The translations under genes and the position numbers were made by a program. This document shows positions 1,213 to 22,084 of a DNA stretch of 34,918 bases, piece by piece (position 1 is the stretch's first letter; each line of letters starts with the position of its first letter). Source of the stretch: a virus. The DNA is taken from IMG/VR virus record IMGVR_UViG_3300018024_000015, positions 1 through 34,918 of that record; one strand, written 5' to 3'. The notes under the pieces were generated by a model. It ran no database searches, was not told where the DNA came from, and saw only the letters and a list, made by a program, of their open reading frames with translations.

Positions 1213-1329
1213 ATGGGGAAAGGTCCCCCCTTTGTCGGCCCGGATATGGCCCCGGCAGCGGCTAAAGAGGCTTACGAAGCTATATTGGCACTAGTTCAAA
1301 TAACCCACTCAAGGAGGATCACCGCATGA
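1213..1329 (+). CDS. Short coupled ORF upstream of bacterioferritin (38 aa)
   Basis: ATG 1213 is preceded by GGGAAGGAGGCT, a strong Shine-Dalgarno, and the frame ends in TGA at 1327-1329, overlapping the bacterioferritin ATG by four bases (ATGA). The product (MGKGPPFVGPDMAP...) has no recognisable domain. The ribosome binding site and overlap suggest it is translated and couples translation into the bacterioferritin gene. It may equally be a leader peptide without independent function. Confidence 0.45.
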   Translation: MGKGPPFVGPDMAPAAAKEAYEAILALVQITHSRRITA

Positions 1330-1799
1330 AAGCAAACCCCAAGATCATCGACATCCTTAACGCCCGGCTGTCAGAAGAACTGACCGCCATTAACCAATAT
1401 ATCGTCCACGCCGAAATGTGCGGCAACTGGCGATACGAGCGTCTCCAGGATGCTATCCGCAAACGGGCCATCATGGAGATGAAGCACGCCGAGAAGATCA
1501 TCGAGCGCATCCTGTTCCTGGAGGGGGCCCCGACCGTCAGCAAACTCAACCAGATTTCCATCGGGCTTGAGGTGCCGATGATGCTCCAGCTCGACCATGC
1601 GGCCGAGATCCTGGCCATCCAGAATTACAACGCCAGCATTTTCCAGGCCAGGCAGTTGGGGGACAACGCCACGGCGGCGCTCTTCGAGTGCATCCTGGCC
1701 GACGAGGAATCCCATATCGACTGGATCGAGGCGCAACAGAACCAAATCGCCCAGGTGGGGGTGCAGATCTACCTTGAAGAGCAGATCAAGGAAAGCTGA
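1326..1799 (+). CDS. bfr: Bacterioferritin, complete ferroxidase centre and heme Met
   Basis: A 157-residue protein, the usual bacterioferritin length, colinear with E. coli Bfr from start to end. Bacterioferritins form 24-subunit cages that oxidise Fe(II) and store the mineral, with heme bound between subunit pairs. All di-iron ligands are at the expected positions: Glu18, Glu51, His54, Glu94, Glu127 and His130. Tyr25 and the heme ligand Met52 (motif EMKHAEKIIERILFLEG) are also present, as is the C-terminal DEESHIDWIE helix. ATG 1326 follows CAAGGAGG. It lies in the phage early block, ATGA-coupled to a 38-aa ORF, between a small Cys protein and an SMC-like ATPase. The GC-rich coding style differs somewhat from the gene at 378, suggesting acquisition from a host. 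The gene appears intact and functional. Confidence 0.95.
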   Translation: MKANPKIIDILNARLSEELTAINQYIVHAEMCGNWRYERLQDAIRKRAIMEMKHAEKIIERILFLEGAPTVSKLNQISIGLEVPMMLQLDHAAEILAIQNYNASIFQARQLGDNATAALFECILADEESHIDWIEAQQNQIAQVGVQIYLEEQIKES

Positions 1800-5231: not shown

Positions 5232-7394
5232 ATGAGGTCCATGCCAGGCCTCCTTTCGAGAGGACTTAATCGCGCACGTCAGATGTTCGGTCTTGAGGGG
5301 CTGGGATCACCATTCTCAGCCCCTTACCTGCGTCAAATGGGCGGCGCGGGTGGCGTGGTTGTTAACCCCGCGGCTACCCAAGCATTCATTACCCCGCCCA
5401 CGCTTCTTGCTTCCCTCGGTTTGGGAGTCACCAAGCCTTATTCCCAGAACATCTGGGTTTACGCCTGTGTCAACGCCATCGCTGATAACATCGCCGCGGT
5501 CCCCCTCAACTTCTTTACTGGCACGGCCGAACAAAAAAAGCCTTTCTCCGATGATAGCCTGGTCAATTTCAGTAATTCCCCTAACCCCTATATGTCACTC
5601 TCCGACCTGACCAAGGCCATACTTACCTGGCTAGGGTTGCAGGGTGAAGCCTTTTGTATCCTGGACCGCGATAACCCCCGGGAATTCCCGAAGGAGGTCT
5701 GGTGTTTTGATCCGGGCCGATTCAAGGAAGTTTCGGATAAAAAGACCGGGTTGATCATAGGCTGGATTTACAACCGTCAGACTACGCGGATCACCTTGGA
5801 ACCCTATGAAGTGCTGTTTATCCGTTATTTCAATCCCTATAACGACATCAGGGGTCTAAGCCCTCTGGCGGCCGGCCAGAAGAGCGTTGACCAGGACTCC
5901 TACGCGGCTGAATACAACATGAGATTTTTCCAGAATTCCGCCAGCCCCGGTGGAGTGCTGCAGACCAAAGACAATATTTCCGAGGAAGATTATCACCGCA
6001 TTCGTGACCAATGGAATGCCAAGCATCAGGGGCTTACCAAGGCTTTTACCATCGCGGTTCTTGAGGGCGGCCTGGAATATAAACCGATAGGCTATACCCA
6101 AAAGGAATCGGATTATCTCGGCGGCCGCAAGCTAAACCGGGAAGAGATCCTGGCCTGCTACAATGTGCCTCCGGAGGCAATCGGGCTGGAGCCACTGCGT
6201 TCCCGTTCCCTGAATGCCAACAGCGATACCCCCCGCAAAATCTTTTGGGAGAGCTGTTTACTCCCCAAAATGACCCTCCTGGAATATTGCTTCTGGAGCC
6301 AGATATTTTCCCAGCTCACCGGCCCGAGGATCTGGGCTGAATTTGATCGTAAATCCATCGCTGCCCTGCAGGATGACTTCAATACCCAGCTTGACCGAGC
6401 CACCAAGCTCTTTGCCATGGGATATTCGAAGGCGGCCATTAATGATCGCCTTGACCTTGGTATGCCCCCCATGGCGGATGATAATGTCGGATACCTGCCT
6501 GTCAACATGATCCCTACTGCCGAGGCTGGAAAGAAGCCCGCAGTTCCTGCTCCCGAAGAAGGCAAAAGCATCACCCAGGTTATTTTCCCGCCATCGCTGC
6601 AAATAACCGGTCCCGGCCCGGAGATCATAGCCCGGCGCAAGCTGGCCCGGCGCACCTCCTGGCAGCAATACAATCAGCTCCAGACCACCTTCGAGCGAAA
6701 GTTCCAGCCGCGCATGAAGCGGTATTTTTATGACCAGCGCAAGGAGCAGCTCCGGCTCGTCGAGCAAAATTGGGGCAAATTCATCCGGCTGGTCCGGGCC
6801 TCTGACGACCAGGTGGATGACCTCCTTTTCGACCTGGAGGCATGGAACGCCAACCTTAAGAAAATCTCCTGGCAATTCTATCAGACCGTGGGCGCCGAAG
6901 CCGGGAAGGGTATCATGCTTGAGCTCGGGGCCGATCCTGCGTCATTCATCCTGGCCGATACCCCGGCCATCGAAGTGCTCAAAACCAAGCTGATCAAGGT
7001 GGTGGCCATTAACGACATCACCAGGGAAAAACTCCGTGACACCTTGATGGAAGGCATGGGCAAGCTGGAAACAGTAGCCGAGCTCCAGGACCGGGTGCGC
7101 GAGGTCTATAACTTCTCCGAATCCCGGTCACTGACCATCGCCCGGACGGAAACCGGCCAGGCAGCCACACCGGCCCGAGATGCGGCCATGAAGATGCTGG
7201 GGGTCGAGCGCCAGGAATGGACCACGGCCGGCGACGACAAGGTGCGGGAGATCCACGCCGAGATGGACGGTGAGATCGTGGACCTGGGGGATGCTTTCAG
7301 CAACGGGCTTCTTTATCCGTGCGATCCGAGCGGTGATGCGGATGAGGTTATCAACTGTAGGTGCTGTGCGGCTCCCGTAGTGGAGAAAGACTGA
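5232..7394 (+). CDS. Portal protein fused to Mu F/SPP1 gp7-like head morphogenesis domain
   Basis: 720 residues. Residues about 60-440 are an HK97-family portal (WVYACVNAIADNIAAVPL; later the RKLNREEILACYNVPPEAIG element), which forms the dodecameric DNA gateway of the head. After a Pro/Ala linker, residues about 490-720 carry the phage Mu F/SPP1 gp7 minor-head domain, with the diagnostic IARTETGQA, DDKVREIHAEMDGE and C-terminal INCRC elements. These two are normally separate adjacent genes. ATG 5232 lacks a clear ribosome site; ATG 5241 (MPGLLSRGLNRARQM), behind GAGG, reads more like a usual portal start, so the true start may be nine bases later. No terminase gene precedes it. Confidence 0.92.
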   Translation: MRSMPGLLSRGLNRARQMFGLEGLGSPFSAPYLRQMGGAGGVVVNPAATQAFITPPTLLASLGLGVTKPYSQNIWVYACVNAIADNIAAVPLNFFTGTAEQKKPFSDDSLVNFSNSPNPYMSLSDLTKAILTWLGLQGEAFCILDRDNPREFPKEVWCFDPGRFKEVSDKKTGLIIGWIYNRQTTRITLEPYEVLFIRYFNPYNDIRGLSPLAAGQKSVDQDSYAAEYNMRFFQNSASPGGVLQTKDNISEEDYHRIRDQWNAKHQGLTKAFTIAVLEGGLEYKPIGYTQKESDYLGGRKLNREEILACYNVPPEAIGLEPLRSRSLNANSDTPRKIFWESCLLPKMTLLEYCFWSQIFSQLTGPRIWAEFDRKSIAALQDDFNTQLDRATKLFAMGYSKAAINDRLDLGMPPMADDNVGYLPVNMIPTAEAGKKPAVPAPEEGKSITQVIFPPSLQITGPGPEIIARRKLARRTSWQQYNQLQTTFERKFQPRMKRYFYDQRKEQLRLVEQNWGKFIRLVRASDDQVDDLLFDLEAWNANLKKISWQFYQTVGAEAGKGIMLELGADPASFILADTPAIEVLKTKLIKVVAINDITREKLRDTLMEGMGKLETVAELQDRVREVYNFSESRSLTIARTETGQAATPARDAAMKMLGVERQEWTTAGDDKVREIHAEMDGEIVDLGDAFSNGLLYPCDPSGDADEVINCRCCAAPVVEKD

Positions 7395-7418: not shown

Positions 7419-7688
7419 TTGGCTACACAGGTCCAGCCACGAATCGGTATCCAGATCAGCCCGGACATACTGGCCATGATCTTTCGGGCCGGGGCGGTCA
7501 TCAAGACAAAAAACGGCTATGAGATCGAGCTGGCGGAAGGCGGGATACCGGACGATTATTTGCTGCAAAAATATGGCATCGACCCGGAAACAAAACAGGG
7601 AATTTTTATTTTCGGCCCCCGGGGATCAACCGGCCCAGTGAAATGGCAGTCCCCGGTTTATCAGAAGACAAAAAAGGAGGAAAGCTGA
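7419..7688 (+). CDS. Small head-region protein of unknown function (89 aa)
   Basis: TTG start at 7419 behind AAGGAGACCCCG; the stop (TGA 7686-7688) overlaps the protease ATG by one base. The protein (MATQVQPRIGIQISPDIL...) is a small mixed alpha/beta chain with no motif I recognise, ending in a Lys/Glu-rich tail. Its place between portal and protease, and the tight coupling, suggest a head assembly or regulatory role. Confidence 0.6.
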   Translation: MATQVQPRIGIQISPDILAMIFRAGAVIKTKNGYEIELAEGGIPDDYLLQKYGIDPETKQGIFIFGPRGSTGPVKWQSPVYQKTKKEES

Positions 7689-9616
7689 TGGACCCTAAAA
7701 ATATGGTGCGCCAGGTTTTTGATTTCCAGATAAAGGAGGTCGGGCCTTCCCAGGATCGGGTCCTGGAATTCATTGGGTCCACCAGCGATGTTGACCGTTA
7801 TGGCGATATCATCGATGTGGAAGGCTGGGACCTCAAAAACTATCTGAAAAACCCGGTCTTCCTCTGGGCGCATAATTATCAGCATCCGCCGATCGGCAAA
7901 GCCCTCAGTGTCAAGAAAGCCGACGGTGCCCTTACCTTTCGAATCCAATTCCCCACTCCGGAGGAATTTCCGTTTGCCGATACCATTTATAAGCTCTACC
8001 TGGGCGGCTATCTCAAGGCCACCAGTGTCGGGTTTGGCGGCCTCGATTCGGAAGGGATCTACGGCGAGCCCCAGGGTGACAGCGGCTGGCGCCCTTATCT
8101 CGGCACTCATTACCACAAACAGGAGCTTTACGAGCTGAGTGCGGTGCCGGTCCCGGCCAACCCCAATGCCCTGCAAATGGCGGTGAAAAAGGGGATTCTC
8201 TCCGCGGAACAGGTAAAGACTTTTCCTTCCCAATCATCTTTTGTGGGCCCGCTTTGCGCCGGGTGCGGTAAGCCCTGGGAAGAAAAGGAGTGCGGCCCCC
8301 ACCATGCCAAGATCTTTGCGGAGATCCAGGCCGGCACTACCGGGATCAGCGACGAGGCAAAGCCTGAGGAAAAGGGCGTGATCCCTTATAAAGCATACCC
8401 CAAAGAAGACGAGGATGCCGCCTGGGACGGCCCGGCCCAGGTCAAAGCCGCCGATGTTGTAACCCTCAAACTCATTTGCACCTGGTTCGACTCCGAGAAG
8501 CCGGACATCAAGGGCTCTTATAAACTGCCGCATCACCTGGCCGAAAACAAGCATGTCGTCTGGAAAGGGGTCAGCGCGGCCATGGCGGCGTTGCTGGGTG
8601 CCCGGGGCGGCGTCGATGTGCCGGATGGTGACCGCAAGGGGATCTATAACCATCTGGCCAAGCATTATAAGCAGTTCGATAAGGATGTGCCCGAATTCAA
8701 GGATTACACGGCGGTCGAGCTGCGGCTGATCGAACCGGAAGAAATCGACAAGCTGCTGGAAGCCAAACCGATGTATCCCTTGGGGTTAGCTCCCATTGAG
8801 GCTGCCTCACGCGCCATAATCCAAATGGCTTTCAAGCAAGCGGCCGGCGCCGATGCCTGCGCCTCTTGCCCGGAGCAAGAGGGCTGCTGTTGCACTACCT
8901 GCGCGAATAACCAGGCGGGGGTCTGCTGCTGCGATTCCTGTGACAAGAAGGGAACCTGCGAATGTTGCCCTGGTGAGGGTGCCTGCGATACCTGCCTCTG
9001 CAAGGTCTCAGGTGCTGTCACCTGCGACGGCTGCGATCTTTCGGAAACCTGCGTCTGCAATTCCTGTGACCAGGCGCCATCCTGCCATTGCGGTCCTTGC
9101 AGCCCTACCACCCCACCGCAAAGAGCGGCTGGCAACCTGAAAACTGCCTGTCCGGAAAAATGCGTCAAGTGCCCCTTTACCAACACCTGCTCCTGCAAGG
9201 GCTGCGATTTGATGGATGCCTGCCATTGTTCCCCCTGCACCCCGAATCCGCAGAAATCGGCTTGCGGGATCTGCAAGGGCGGGAACTACCAGGCCAAGGC
9301 TGGGGGCACCTGTCCGGGAAAGGTCGGGAAACTCCCCGTTAAGACCAAGACCGGGGCCGTCCTGAGCGCCAAGAACAAAGAGCATCTTGAAAAATGCGTG
9401 GGGCACATGAAAGATGCCATGGACCGCTGCCAAAAGGTCCTGGATGCTGCCACCCCCGCTGATGATGACGATAGCAAAAGCTATTACCGCGTGGCGTTGA
9501 ACCCCGGCGAAGAGCCTCATGGGGTGAAACCAGCCGATGCGACGAAAGAAGCGGTAGAGATGGAAAAGATTCGGCAACTAACCGAAAAACTGCATTCAAC
9601 GCTATTCAAAAAATAA
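7688..9616 (+). CDS. HK97-type prohead protease with 35-cysteine repeat insertion
   Basis: ATG 7688 follows AAAGGAGGAAAGCTG; the longer frame from 7643 lacks such a site. Of 642 residues, about 1-175 form the S78/U35 prohead protease, with His in FLWAHNYQHPP (61-65), Ser in KATSVGF (about 113) and Glu in ELYELSAVPVPANP (about 148), as expected for the catalytic His/Ser/Glu. It should cleave the capsid delta domain during maturation. Residues about 235-345 hold a second domain (YKLPHHLAENK, ARGGVDVPD) often found fused to these proteases. Residues about 390-531 are exceptional: 35 Cys in some 140 residues, in units like CxCxxCDxxxxCxCxxC. The tail (about 555-642) is helical and scaffold-like. 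The Cys region could bind metal or form disulfides; I know no precedent in a capsid protease. Confidence 0.9.
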   Translation: MDPKNMVRQVFDFQIKEVGPSQDRVLEFIGSTSDVDRYGDIIDVEGWDLKNYLKNPVFLWAHNYQHPPIGKALSVKKADGALTFRIQFPTPEEFPFADTIYKLYLGGYLKATSVGFGGLDSEGIYGEPQGDSGWRPYLGTHYHKQELYELSAVPVPANPNALQMAVKKGILSAEQVKTFPSQSSFVGPLCAGCGKPWEEKECGPHHAKIFAEIQAGTTGISDEAKPEEKGVIPYKAYPKEDEDAAWDGPAQVKAADVVTLKLICTWFDSEKPDIKGSYKLPHHLAENKHVVWKGVSAAMAALLGARGGVDVPDGDRKGIYNHLAKHYKQFDKDVPEFKDYTAVELRLIEPEEIDKLLEAKPMYPLGLAPIEAASRAIIQMAFKQAAGADACASCPEQEGCCCTTCANNQAGVCCCDSCDKKGTCECCPGEGACDTCLCKVSGAVTCDGCDLSETCVCNSCDQAPSCHCGPCSPTTPPQRAAGNLKTACPEKCVKCPFTNTCSCKGCDLMDACHCSPCTPNPQKSACGICKGGNYQAKAGGTCPGKVGKLPVKTKTGAVLSAKNKEHLEKCVGHMKDAMDRCQKVLDAATPADDDDSKSYYRVALNPGEEPHGVKPADATKEAVEMEKIRQLTEKLHSTLFKK

Positions 9617-9630
9617 GAGGAACCCTACCT

Positions 9631-10905
9631 ATGGATAAAATTGAGCAATTGCTTGCGGCCATTCAGGGCAAGCTAGACGAGACGGTGAATGGGTCGGATG
9701 GTAAGCCCATCACTATCCTGGAAGCCTTCAAGATGTTTCCCGAACTCCAGGAAAACTTCGCTGACCTGAAGAAGCGGTTGGAAGCCATGGAAACCATGGC
9801 TAAAGAGCGCAAATGGGCCAACATCCCCGGCGTGGAACACGGCACGGGAAAAAACCAGTTCTCCCTCTGCCGGGCCATGTTTGCCATCCAAACCAACGAT
9901 TGGAAGGACGCTGGCTATGAAAAGGAGGTTTTCCAGGCAACCAGCCTGAAGGCCATGGGGTACAGCGCTGACACCCTGGGCGGCTATCTGGTCCCGGCCC
10001 AGGCCATCCCGGAGCTCATCGAGTTCCTGCGTGCCGTGCCGATCTGCATGAAACTCGGGGCCACGGTCATCCCCGACCTGATGGGCTCCCCGGTTCTTAT
10101 GCCGAAACAGACCGCGGGGGCCACGATCGCCTGGGTGGGTGAAAACATTACCGTCACCCCCAGCGACCTGGCCTTCGGGCAGGTGCAACTCACCCCCAAG
10201 AAAGCCATGGCCCTGGCCCAGGTTTCCAACAGCCTGATCCGCATGGCTCTCCCGGCGGCGGAGGGCGTAATCACCAACGATCTGGGGCTCCAATTAGCCC
10301 TGGCGGTGGACATCGCCGCCCTGCGCGGCCCCGGCGCCGCCAATCAGCCCCTGGGTATCGCCAACAGCCCGAATATTGGCACCTATGCATTGGGGGGCGT
10401 CAATGACGGGGTTCTGCTCCAAAACCTCGATTTTAAGGATGACATGGAGTATGTTCTGGCGGCCGCCAATGCCCTGCGCGGCAAACTGGGCTTCGCCTTT
10501 AACCCGATTGTCCGGCGGAACCTCAAGAAGATCAAGGTGCCGCAGTTCACCGGCGACGCCGGCGTACAGCCCCTGGTGGAATGGTTTGCAGCCCTAGCCA
10601 TCGGCGGGGCCGGTTTCATGAGCGATGCAGCTCTGGAGGCGGCTCTGGGGTATCCCTTCGAGGTCACCACGCAGATCCCCACCAACCTGGTATCGGGCAG
10701 TTACAGCAACTGCACCGAGATTTATTTCGGTAACTGGGCGGAGTTGCTCATAGGTATTTGGGCCGGCCTGCGGATCATGGTTTCGGATGTGGCCGGCACC
10801 GCCTTCGCCAGCGACCAGACCTGGCTGCGCATCATCATGGAGGTGGATACGGCGCTGCGGCACGACCAGTCTTTCTGCTACTGCAGCAATGTGAGGGCCT
10901 CCTAA
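9631..10905 (+). CDS. HK97-family major capsid protein
   Basis: 424 residues, directly after the protease. The N-terminal ~105 residues are charged and helical with coiled-coil character (LEAMETMAKERKW), matching the delta/scaffold domain removed by the protease. The rest shows the HK97 fold pattern: TLGGYLVPAQAIPELIE, TIAWVGENITVTPSDLAFGQ, a RGPGAANQPLGI segment and a C-terminal DTALRHDQSFCY strand. It polymerises into the icosahedral shell. RBS is GAGGAACCC before ATG 9631. A GC hairpin follows the gene. The exact delta-domain cleavage site cannot be read from sequence alone. Confidence 0.92.
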   Translation: MDKIEQLLAAIQGKLDETVNGSDGKPITILEAFKMFPELQENFADLKKRLEAMETMAKERKWANIPGVEHGTGKNQFSLCRAMFAIQTNDWKDAGYEKEVFQATSLKAMGYSADTLGGYLVPAQAIPELIEFLRAVPICMKLGATVIPDLMGSPVLMPKQTAGATIAWVGENITVTPSDLAFGQVQLTPKKAMALAQVSNSLIRMALPAAEGVITNDLGLQLALAVDIAALRGPGAANQPLGIANSPNIGTYALGGVNDGVLLQNLDFKDDMEYVLAAANALRGKLGFAFNPIVRRNLKKIKVPQFTGDAGVQPLVEWFAALAIGGAGFMSDAALEAALGYPFEVTTQIPTNLVSGSYSNCTEIYFGNWAELLIGIWAGLRIMVSDVAGTAFASDQTWLRIIMEVDTALRHDQSFCYCSNVRAS

Positions 10906-20671: not shown

Positions 20672-21304
20672 ATGGACCTTACTACCCTTGCAAGCGTGAA
20701 AGCATCTCCCTGGCTGGCCGATATGGTCTTAGGGGATTGGCAGGACACCTGGGACACTATGATCGGCTACCTGATCACGGCCCGGTCCCGGGATGCCGAG
20801 CGCTACTGCAACCGTGAATTCGAGAAGAAGCAGGTAATCGAATATCACGACGGCGGCGGGAAGTTCCTGTTTCTCAAGCGCACCCCCATCAATTCCCTGG
20901 TGGATATCAAATGGTCCCTTTTTTACGATTGGACCGAGAATTACCTGGAGATCGATGCTCAAACCCCCATGGTCGGCTTCAATGCTACCATCGGGTCAGT
21001 AATCCTCATCGGCGGGATCGACTGGTATACCGGGATCAAAACCATCCAGGTGACCTACATCGGCGGATACGATCTCCTGACCACGGCTCCCAGTGCCCCG
21101 CCCATCCCGCCTTATATGCCTCTACCGGAAGACCTGGAGGCAGCTATCGCCCAGCAGGTCGCCTATGATTTCAGGCGGCGGAAGGACCTGGGGCTTATCT
21201 CAGTAACGATGATTGATGGGAGCATCCAGAAGAAGAGTACTGACAAATGGCTGCCGGATGTCGAGCTGGTTCTTAAAAAATACCGGCATCGCTTCTTTGG
21301 GTAA
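20672..21304 (+). CDS. Head-tail connector (gp6-like adaptor)
   Basis: 210 residues; RBS AAGGTGAGGTA before ATG 20672. The N-terminal helices (LITARSRDAERYCNREFE), the loop motif FLKRTPINSLVDI and the beta region (IQVTYIGGYD...PLPEDLEAAIAQQVAYDFRRR) are typical of HK97 gp6/SPP1 gp15-type connector proteins, which stack under the portal and gate the DNA exit. The gene resumes the canonical morphogenesis order after the accessory insertion. Confidence 0.8.
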   Translation: MDLTTLASVKASPWLADMVLGDWQDTWDTMIGYLITARSRDAERYCNREFEKKQVIEYHDGGGKFLFLKRTPINSLVDIKWSLFYDWTENYLEIDAQTPMVGFNATIGSVILIGGIDWYTGIKTIQVTYIGGYDLLTTAPSAPPIPPYMPLPEDLEAAIAQQVAYDFRRRKDLGLISVTMIDGSIQKKSTDKWLPDVELVLKKYRHRFFG

Positions 21305-21317
21305 GGAGGCAAAGGTC

Positions 21318-21845
21318 ATGCAAAAATACGAAAGGATCGTCGCCTTCCCGGGGCTCGTAAATGTCGGGATAGTCTCATTTTACCCAGACCATGAGGCCCT
21401 ATGTGCCGATTCCCGTTCTCTGAGTATGACCATGGGCGCCAATATCCTGCGGGCCGCAGCACCTCAATCTTATGAGATGCTGGCGAAGATGGGGATCAAG
21501 ACCACTCTAAATCTGCAGATGGCCAGCGAAAAGCAGAAGGATGATACGGTAGGCATAAAAGAAATCTGGGTGCCTTTGTCGGTCTATCAATCCATTCCCC
21601 CCGCGAAATTTAACAGCATCATAAAAGTCACTCAGGACCCGGCCAATTATCCTCTCCTCATTCATTGTTTGGCTGGCCATGACCGGACCGGGGTAGTCTG
21701 CGCGGCCCGGCGCATGGCGGTGGACGGCTGGGCCTGGTTCGAGGCCATCGAGGAGATGGATCATTTTGGCTACAACATTCTGACCGTCCCCCTGATGCTC
21801 TCGCTCAAGGATTGGGCCAAGGACAAGGGGATCACGGTAACCTGA
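21318..21845 (+). CDS. Tyrosine/dual-specificity phosphatase-like protein
   Basis: ATG 21318 follows TAAGGAGGCAAAGGTC; an upstream in-frame ATG at 21213 overlaps the connector. In 175 residues, the P-loop HCLAGHDRTG (about 116-125) matches HCxxGxxR(T/S) of protein tyrosine phosphatases, whose Cys attacks phosphate and whose Arg binds it. The preceding part (LAKMGIKTTLNLQM, WVPLSVYQSIPP) fits an atypical dual-specificity fold. A candidate general acid is not obvious. Substrates could be phosphoproteins, phosphoinositide-like or sugar phosphates; none can be chosen. It is unusual within connector genes and may be a cargo gene acting on the host. Confidence 0.8.
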   Translation: MQKYERIVAFPGLVNVGIVSFYPDHEALCADSRSLSMTMGANILRAAAPQSYEMLAKMGIKTTLNLQMASEKQKDDTVGIKEIWVPLSVYQSIPPAKFNSIIKVTQDPANYPLLIHCLAGHDRTGVVCAARRMAVDGWAWFEAIEEMDHFGYNILTVPLMLSLKDWAKDKGITVT

Positions 21846-21859
21846 TAAAGGAGGGATTT

Positions 21860-22084
21860 ATGAAATTCAAACCTTGGGAGAAAGAAGTACTGCCGGAACC
21901 GCTTCTAGACGAATTGACCATGACTTGCACATGCCGCGGCTGTAGTTGCCAGGCTTGCAATGGCCTTCTATGGGTGACACTCCGGGAAGCCATCAAGTGG
22001 GACATGATCACGAAGAAGCAGGCCCTGGCAAAAGTCGAAAATTACAAAAAGGAAAAGGCTGAAAAAGAAGTAGCCCATGGCTGA
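21860..22084 (+). CDS. Small Cys-cluster protein (74 aa)
   Basis: ATG 21860 follows AAAGGAGGGATTT; the 21812 start lies in the phosphatase. The first half contains TCTCRGCSCQACNG, four Cys spaced CxCxxCxCxxC, similar to the units in the prohead protease insert (TCSCKGC). The C-terminal half is a charged helix (KALAKVENYKKEKAEKE region). Overlaps the next gene by 8 nt. Metal binding is plausible. Function unknown. Confidence 0.55.
   Translation: MKFKPWEKEVLPEPLLDELTMTCTCRGCSCQACNGLLWVTLREAIKWDMITKKQALAKVENYKKEKAEKEVAHG

What the first reader, a model, noticed from the sequence alone, without database searches (positions are those of the whole stretch)
8857..9280. 35-cysteine repetitive insert in a prohead protease
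About 140 residues carry 35 Cys in CxCxxCDxxxxCxCxxC-like units between protease and scaffold-like tail. Clusters of this density are usual in metal-binding or disulfide-rich proteins, not in capsid proteases. With bacterioferritin and the small Cys protein at 21860 it hints that this phage handles metal, perhaps storing zinc, iron or iron-sulfur clusters in the prohead or sensing redox before protease activation.
Basis: partly seen in the sequence, partly recalled or inferred. Interest (0 to 1): 0.8.

Follow-up and report, generated by a model that had tools for sequence, protein, structure and literature searches.

The report
Metallothionein-like module in prohead protease
A phage enzyme that trims the inside of the newly built virus shell carries a conserved stretch packed with 35 cysteines, built like a metal-binding metallothionein; this is an optional add-on that we found described on no such enzyme before, and what it does is still untested.

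Summary
The prohead protease (7688-9616, +) carries exactly 35 Cys in 139 residues (391-529; nt 8858-9274) with an 11-residue Cys period. A second virus (L277-L279, three near-identical contigs; capsid protein 69% identical) has a homologous array: 34 of 35 Cys are conserved against 45 of 95 other residues, at saturated synonymous divergence, and the one lost Cys is matched by one gained nearby. This rules out an assembly error, a frame error or a fresh repeat expansion. The array is an optional module: no other related protease examined has it, neither viral relatives, siblings by capsid phylogeny (L280-L285, L297) nor prophages in the probable host class. It lies in a predicted disordered stretch between a folded domain and C-terminal scaffold-like helices. 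Relatives place other short Cys modules (zinc ribbons, a 10-Cys cluster) in nearby linkers. Composition (25% Cys, one aromatic, CxC/CxxC/CC) is metallothionein-like; no ferredoxin motif occurs. Best reading: a Zn/Cu-thiolate module carried into the prohead by the protease. Metal binding is likely but untested; its role is open. The bacterioferritin and the small Cys protein look like unrelated acquisitions, so the phage-wide metal-handling story is not supported.

The parts
7688..9616 (+). prohead protease gene carrying the Cys array (642 aa, stop included)
   Evidence: phrog_80 head maturation protease, E 1.2e-20; TIGR01543 8e-6, below cut-off; fold match to T4 gp21, 5jbl, E 4.5e-4; lies between portal and major capsid genes
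7694..8212 (+). S78/HK97-type protease domain (residues 3-175); near-invariant H62, S113, L147, E149, S151, P156
8255..8305 (+). small C-x2-C-x8-C-x2-HH motif (residues 190-206), zinc-knuckle-like, absent in L278
   Evidence: metal binding is inference
8366..8722 (+). 'KHYKQF' domain (residues 227-345), folded (pLDDT about 97), mobile between head proteases, no Pfam family
8858..9100 (+). Cys array block 1 (residues 391-471, 24 Cys)
9101..9148 (+). Pro/Thr-containing linker between blocks (SPTTPPQRAAGNLKTA)
9149..9274 (+). Cys array block 2 (residues 488-529, 11 Cys; also 11 Cys in L278)
9311..9313 (+). Cys542, just outside the array, conserved in L278
9353..9616 (+). C-terminal scaffold-like tail with GAVLSAKNK motif (predicted helices 561-588 and 618-641), shared by relatives without the array
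5232..7394 (+). portal protein fused to a Mu gpF-like domain (context)
9631..10905 (+). major capsid protein, HK97 fold family (context)

Best explanation
The insert is a metallothionein-like metal-thiolate module, most likely binding about 11-13 Zn(II) (or Cu(I)) per copy in two lobes of 24 and 11 Cys. It was gained by an ancestor of this phage and L278 in the flexible connector between the folded part of the prohead protease and its scaffold-like C-terminal helices. Being part of the protease, it should be carried into the prohead in many copies. There the metal would fold an otherwise disordered connector into compact lobes that space or stiffen the internal core, until the protease digests the scaffold and itself. 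Shown: the module, its conservation, its optional nature, its position and its predicted disorder without metal. Inferred: metal binding (about 75-80% likely) and entry into the prohead (from known prohead protease biology). Speculative: the structural role.
For: 35 Cys of 139 residues, 1 aromatic, 2 His, 8 CxC, 12 CxxC and 5 CC. 34 of 35 Cys are kept in L278 against 45 of 95 other residues (Fisher P 3e-8), dN 0.30 and dS about 2.5; Cys488 is lost and Cys496 gained, so both have 35. The coding + frame shows by far the strongest synonymous excess. AlphaFold gives confident domains at 20-170 and 230-345, pLDDT about 40 with no stable fold at 386-558, then helices. Other relatives have recognisable metal-site modules in the linkers of the same proteases: six CxCxxC...HC...CPKC zinc ribbons, and in L056-L058 a 10-Cys cluster right after the same domain of an S49-type head protease. 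The capsid tree puts window and L278 as sisters (94/95), L280 next (100/100), which fits one gain.
Against: No metallothionein model matches the array and no solved relative exists. Metal binding is inferred from composition only. AlphaFold cannot model metal clusters. The array is missing from the nearest other relative (L280) and from all prophages read, so it is not needed for head assembly in general. Only two distinct viruses carry it.
Confidence: 0.55

Rival explanations
1. Thiol redox switch: the array is reduced in the cell and oxidises to disulfides on lysis or stress, gating protease activity or locking the core.
For: Dense Cys with CC and CxxC pairs; conservation of Cys but not of neighbours.
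Against: The cytosol where proheads assemble is normally reducing. High CxC content and near absence of hydrophobic core residues (8.6% VLIMFWY) suit metal clusters better than disulfide folds. Relatives keep the protease without any such insert.
Confidence: 0.13
2. Metallothionein cargo: the prohead protease serves as a vehicle, the array is cut free during maturation and stays in the head, or is ejected with DNA, buffering metal or oxidants in the virion or the new host cell.
For: The array lies between flexible stretches next to the protease's own domain. [quoted passage not shown]
Against: No cleavage site is known here. In T4, scaffold fragments and propeptides leave the capsid (PMC5694885), so the array may be cleared too.
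Confidence: 0.14
3. Iron or Fe-S handling together with the bacterioferritin gene.
For: A genuine bacterioferritin is encoded at 1326-1796 (TIGR00754, above cut-off).
Against: No C-x2-C-x2-C-x3-C motif in the array. Ferritin is absent from 13 related viruses (none of these bears the array) and is close to host-class chromosomal genes.
Confidence: 0.05
4. No function: a repeat expansion, sequencing or frame error that happens to code for Cys.
For: DNA-level internal repeats exist; one antisense frame is open.
Against: Repeats are mostly 63-75% identical and so old. A second virus keeps 34 of 35 Cys at saturated dS, seen in three assemblies.
Confidence: 0.03

Closest known systems
HK97-type prohead proteases (Peptidase S78, PF04586; TIGR01543) and T4 gp21
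   Same: Protease domain, gene order portal-protease-capsid, near-invariant His/Ser/Glu positions, fold match to T4 gp21
   Different: Carries a further folded domain of about 120 aa and a 35-Cys array before the scaffold-like tail; the Pfam score is just below its cut-off (19.5 against 21 bits)
Metallothioneins (bacterial SmtA/PflQ2MT; animal two-domain MTs)
   Same: About 25% Cys, almost no aromatics, CxC/CxxC/CC, two lobes with a linker
   Different: Part of a 642-aa enzyme, not a small free protein; few His (bacterial MTs use His); no match to any MT profile; longer (35 Cys)
Zinc-ribbon inserts in related head proteases (L019, L020, L033, L055, L063, L065)
   Same: Cys modules inserted in the linkers of the same protease family
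   Different: One C-x-C-x2-C...H-C...C-x2-C ribbon, on the other side of the KHYKQF domain; not homologous to the array
S49-type head protease with 10-Cys cluster (L056-L058)
   Same: Dense Cys cluster directly after the same KHYKQF domain in a head protease
   Different: S49 not S78 protease, only 10 Cys in the cluster, not returned by a scan with the array alignment

Membership tests
Metallothionein | High Cys (15-35%) with CxC, CxxC, CC pattern | tested here: met
   35/139 Cys, 8 CxC, 12 CxxC, 5 CC
Metallothionein | Few or no aromatic residues | tested here: met
   1 of 139
Metallothionein | Small, stand-alone protein | tested here: not met
   embedded in a 642-aa protease
Metallothionein | Sequence match to a described MT family | tested here: not met
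   no Pfam family for the array alone at E up to 5, no PDB relative
Metallothionein | Binds several d10 metal ions in thiolate clusters | not testable with these tools
   needs ICP-MS, native MS, CD
Peptidase S78 / HK97 prohead protease | Homology to the protease domain | tested here: met
   phrog_80 E 1.2e-20; Pfam S78 E 0.0012, just under the curated cut-off; T4 gp21 fold
Peptidase S78 / HK97 prohead protease | Conserved catalytic His and Ser | tested here: met
   H62, S113, E149 at least 90% conserved in an alignment of 55 sequences; catalytic assignment is inference
Peptidase S78 / HK97 prohead protease | Lies between portal and major capsid genes | tested here: met
Bacterial-type [4Fe-4S] ferredoxin | C-x2-C-x2-C-x3-C motif | tested here: not met
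   no such spacing in the array
Zinc ribbon | two CxxC-type knuckles 10-25 residues apart in a folded domain | tested here: not met
   array is repetitive at period 11, predicted disordered

The most novel reading that the evidence does not exclude
The phage uses its prohead protease as a delivery vehicle for a metallothionein: the 35-Cys metal-loaded module is loaded into the prohead, cut free, retained, and injected with the DNA to control Zn/Cu or oxidants at the start of infection.
Probability: 0.1. Interest if true: 0.85.

Novelty: new variant of a known kind. Interest (0 to 1): 0.6.

Why it matters
Prohead proteases are thought of as transient tools that digest the scaffold and vanish. 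A large conserved metallothionein-like array on one of them suggests metal-dependent folding in prohead assembly, or metal cargo in the head; neither was found in the paper library searched here. It also shows that the linkers of these proteases are hot spots for swapping Cys/metal modules, which can be tested with one recombinant fragment and one virion proteome.

Tried and rejected
Generic Cys-spacing DNA scans of viral contigs gave mainly low-complexity or antisense frames. A scan with the array alone found nothing; the route that worked was the capsid protein. Targeted array scans returned only L277-L279. No array relative in phages (one hit, E 0.2), plasmids, PDB, Pfam, 395 genomes of the phylum of L063 or 29 of the likely host class (three weak hits, E about 0.04). 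Searches had no positive control, so their empty answers are weak. AlphaFold with two sequences was useless (pLDDT 32). Iron/Fe-S link rejected on motif and context. A paper search for 'cysteine-rich' with 'prohead protease' found none; subscription journals are missing from that library.

Full report
OBSERVATION. The window is a whole IMG/VR record of 34,918 bases. The gene at 7688-9616 (+) encodes 642 residues. It has 42 Cys, 35 of them in residues 391-529. Other window proteins have 1.06% Cys; the excess has P of about 2e-37. The Cys follow an 11-residue period (17 pairs at lag 11, shuffled mean 7.9, 0 of 5000 as high). The unit is C-x2-C-(D)-x4-C-x, arranged as 24 Cys, a 16-residue Pro/Thr-containing linker, then 11 Cys.

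ARCHITECTURE. Residues 3-175 are a head maturation protease (phrog_80, E 1.2e-20; TIGR01543 and Pfam S78 weakly; fold of T4 gp21), with H62, S113 and E149 nearly invariant in an alignment of 55 sequences. Residues 227-345 form a second domain, called here KHYKQF after its motif. It has no Pfam family. It also occurs in other head proteases, in an unassigned gene of Methanocaldococcus fervens tailed virus 1, and as most of a small protein in a Moorella phage. AlphaFold with 55 sequences gives pLDDT over 90 for the protease core, about 97 for KHYKQF, about 40 without stable structure at 386-558, then two helices at 561-588 and 618-641. The helical tail with the GAVLSAKNK motif is shared with proteases that have no array.

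CONSERVATION. A search with the capsid protein found L277, L278 and L279, near-identical contigs from three assemblies, 69% identical in capsid protein; these may be re-assemblies of related samples, so they count as one virus. Their protease has a homologous array. Of 35 window Cys, 34 align with Cys; Cys488 is Pro in L278 while Pro496 is Cys, so both arrays hold 35. Only 45 of 95 other aligned residues are identical. dS is saturated (about 2.5) and dN is 0.30. The array is therefore old, coding and under selection for Cys. Internal DNA repeats are mostly only 63-75% identical.

DISTRIBUTION. A survey of 77 related protease ORFs found the array only in L277-L279. By capsid phylogeny the window and L278 are sisters (94/95) and L280 is next (100/100). 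L280 lacks both the KHYKQF domain and the array; L284 and L297 have the domain alone; L281, L283 and L285 have neither. Prophage relatives lie in 9 of 29 genomes of one bacterial class, against 19 of 395 drawn from its whole phylum, which suggests the host class; none of those read has the array. One gain, or an earlier gain and a loss in L280, explains this. Other Cys modules occur in the linkers of these proteases: six zinc ribbons, Cys pairs after the domain in L327, and a 10-Cys cluster after KHYKQF in S49-type proteases L056-L058. The linkers thus repeatedly take up Cys modules.

MECHANISM. The array has metallothionein-like composition: 25% Cys, one aromatic, two His, CxC, CxxC and CC, few hydrophobics. 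Metallothioneins bind Zn and Cu through Cys and His in clusters (PMC10612145); at roughly 2.7-3 Cys per Zn, 35 Cys would hold about 11-13 Zn (inference). Prohead proteases act inside the prohead (established phage biology); in T4 the cleaved core fragments leave the capsid (PMC5694885). I therefore favour a transient, metal-folded module in the prohead interior. Metal binding is likely; the role within the head is a guess. Retained or ejected cargo is the most interesting alternative not excluded.

The metal idea survives for the insert itself. The link with bacterioferritin and the small Cys protein does not: ferritin is absent from 13 relatives (none of these bears the array, and L278 is too short to test) and resembles chromosomal genes of the probable host class at 65-66%. 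The small protein (CTCRGCSCQAC) is missing at the same place in L278. No ferredoxin spacing exists.

LIMITS. Only two distinct viruses carry the array. No metagenome scan was available. The genome searches had no positive control for the array. No biochemical test was possible.

Noticed in passing
L204:411-3233 (-): A 941-aa phage tail protein (phrog_3558, E 4.5e-79) holds its own dense Cys array (57 Cys in the ORF, 27 in 60 residues) between repeated segments: an independent case of a Cys array in a phage structural protein.
   Followed up: partly
L198:3-1409 (+), L223:7224-8060 (+): Another phage protein with 50-59 Cys in CC/CxC/CxxC runs; function unknown.
   Followed up: no
window 1326-1796: A full bacterioferritin gene in a phage record; best matches 65-66% in two genomes of the probable host class, without the neighbouring phage genes.
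   Followed up: partly
window 21857-22081: Small protein with CTCRGCSCQAC (5 Cys in 11 residues), no phage match; lies with a tyrosine-phosphatase-like gene (21213-21845) in a stretch absent from L278.
   Followed up: partly
window 8366-8722 and relatives L002-L065: KHYKQF domain: a well-folded, widely shuffled domain of head proteases (S78 and S49) and of phages of Thermus, Moorella and Methanocaldococcus, without any Pfam family.
   Followed up: partly
BFVD A0A6J5RFH1 and A0A6J5N5R9: Predicted viral proteins of 622 and 679 aa named Dps or Ferritin/DPS match this protease model by fold; they may be prohead protease-ferritin fusions, which would be another metal module on such proteases. Not verified by sequence.
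   Followed up: no
L285:2-1894 (+): The portal/Mu gpF-like ORF of this relative seems to be interrupted by an in-frame insert with intein-like features (starts after ...EVINC, ends ...VCRNCRC).
   Followed up: no
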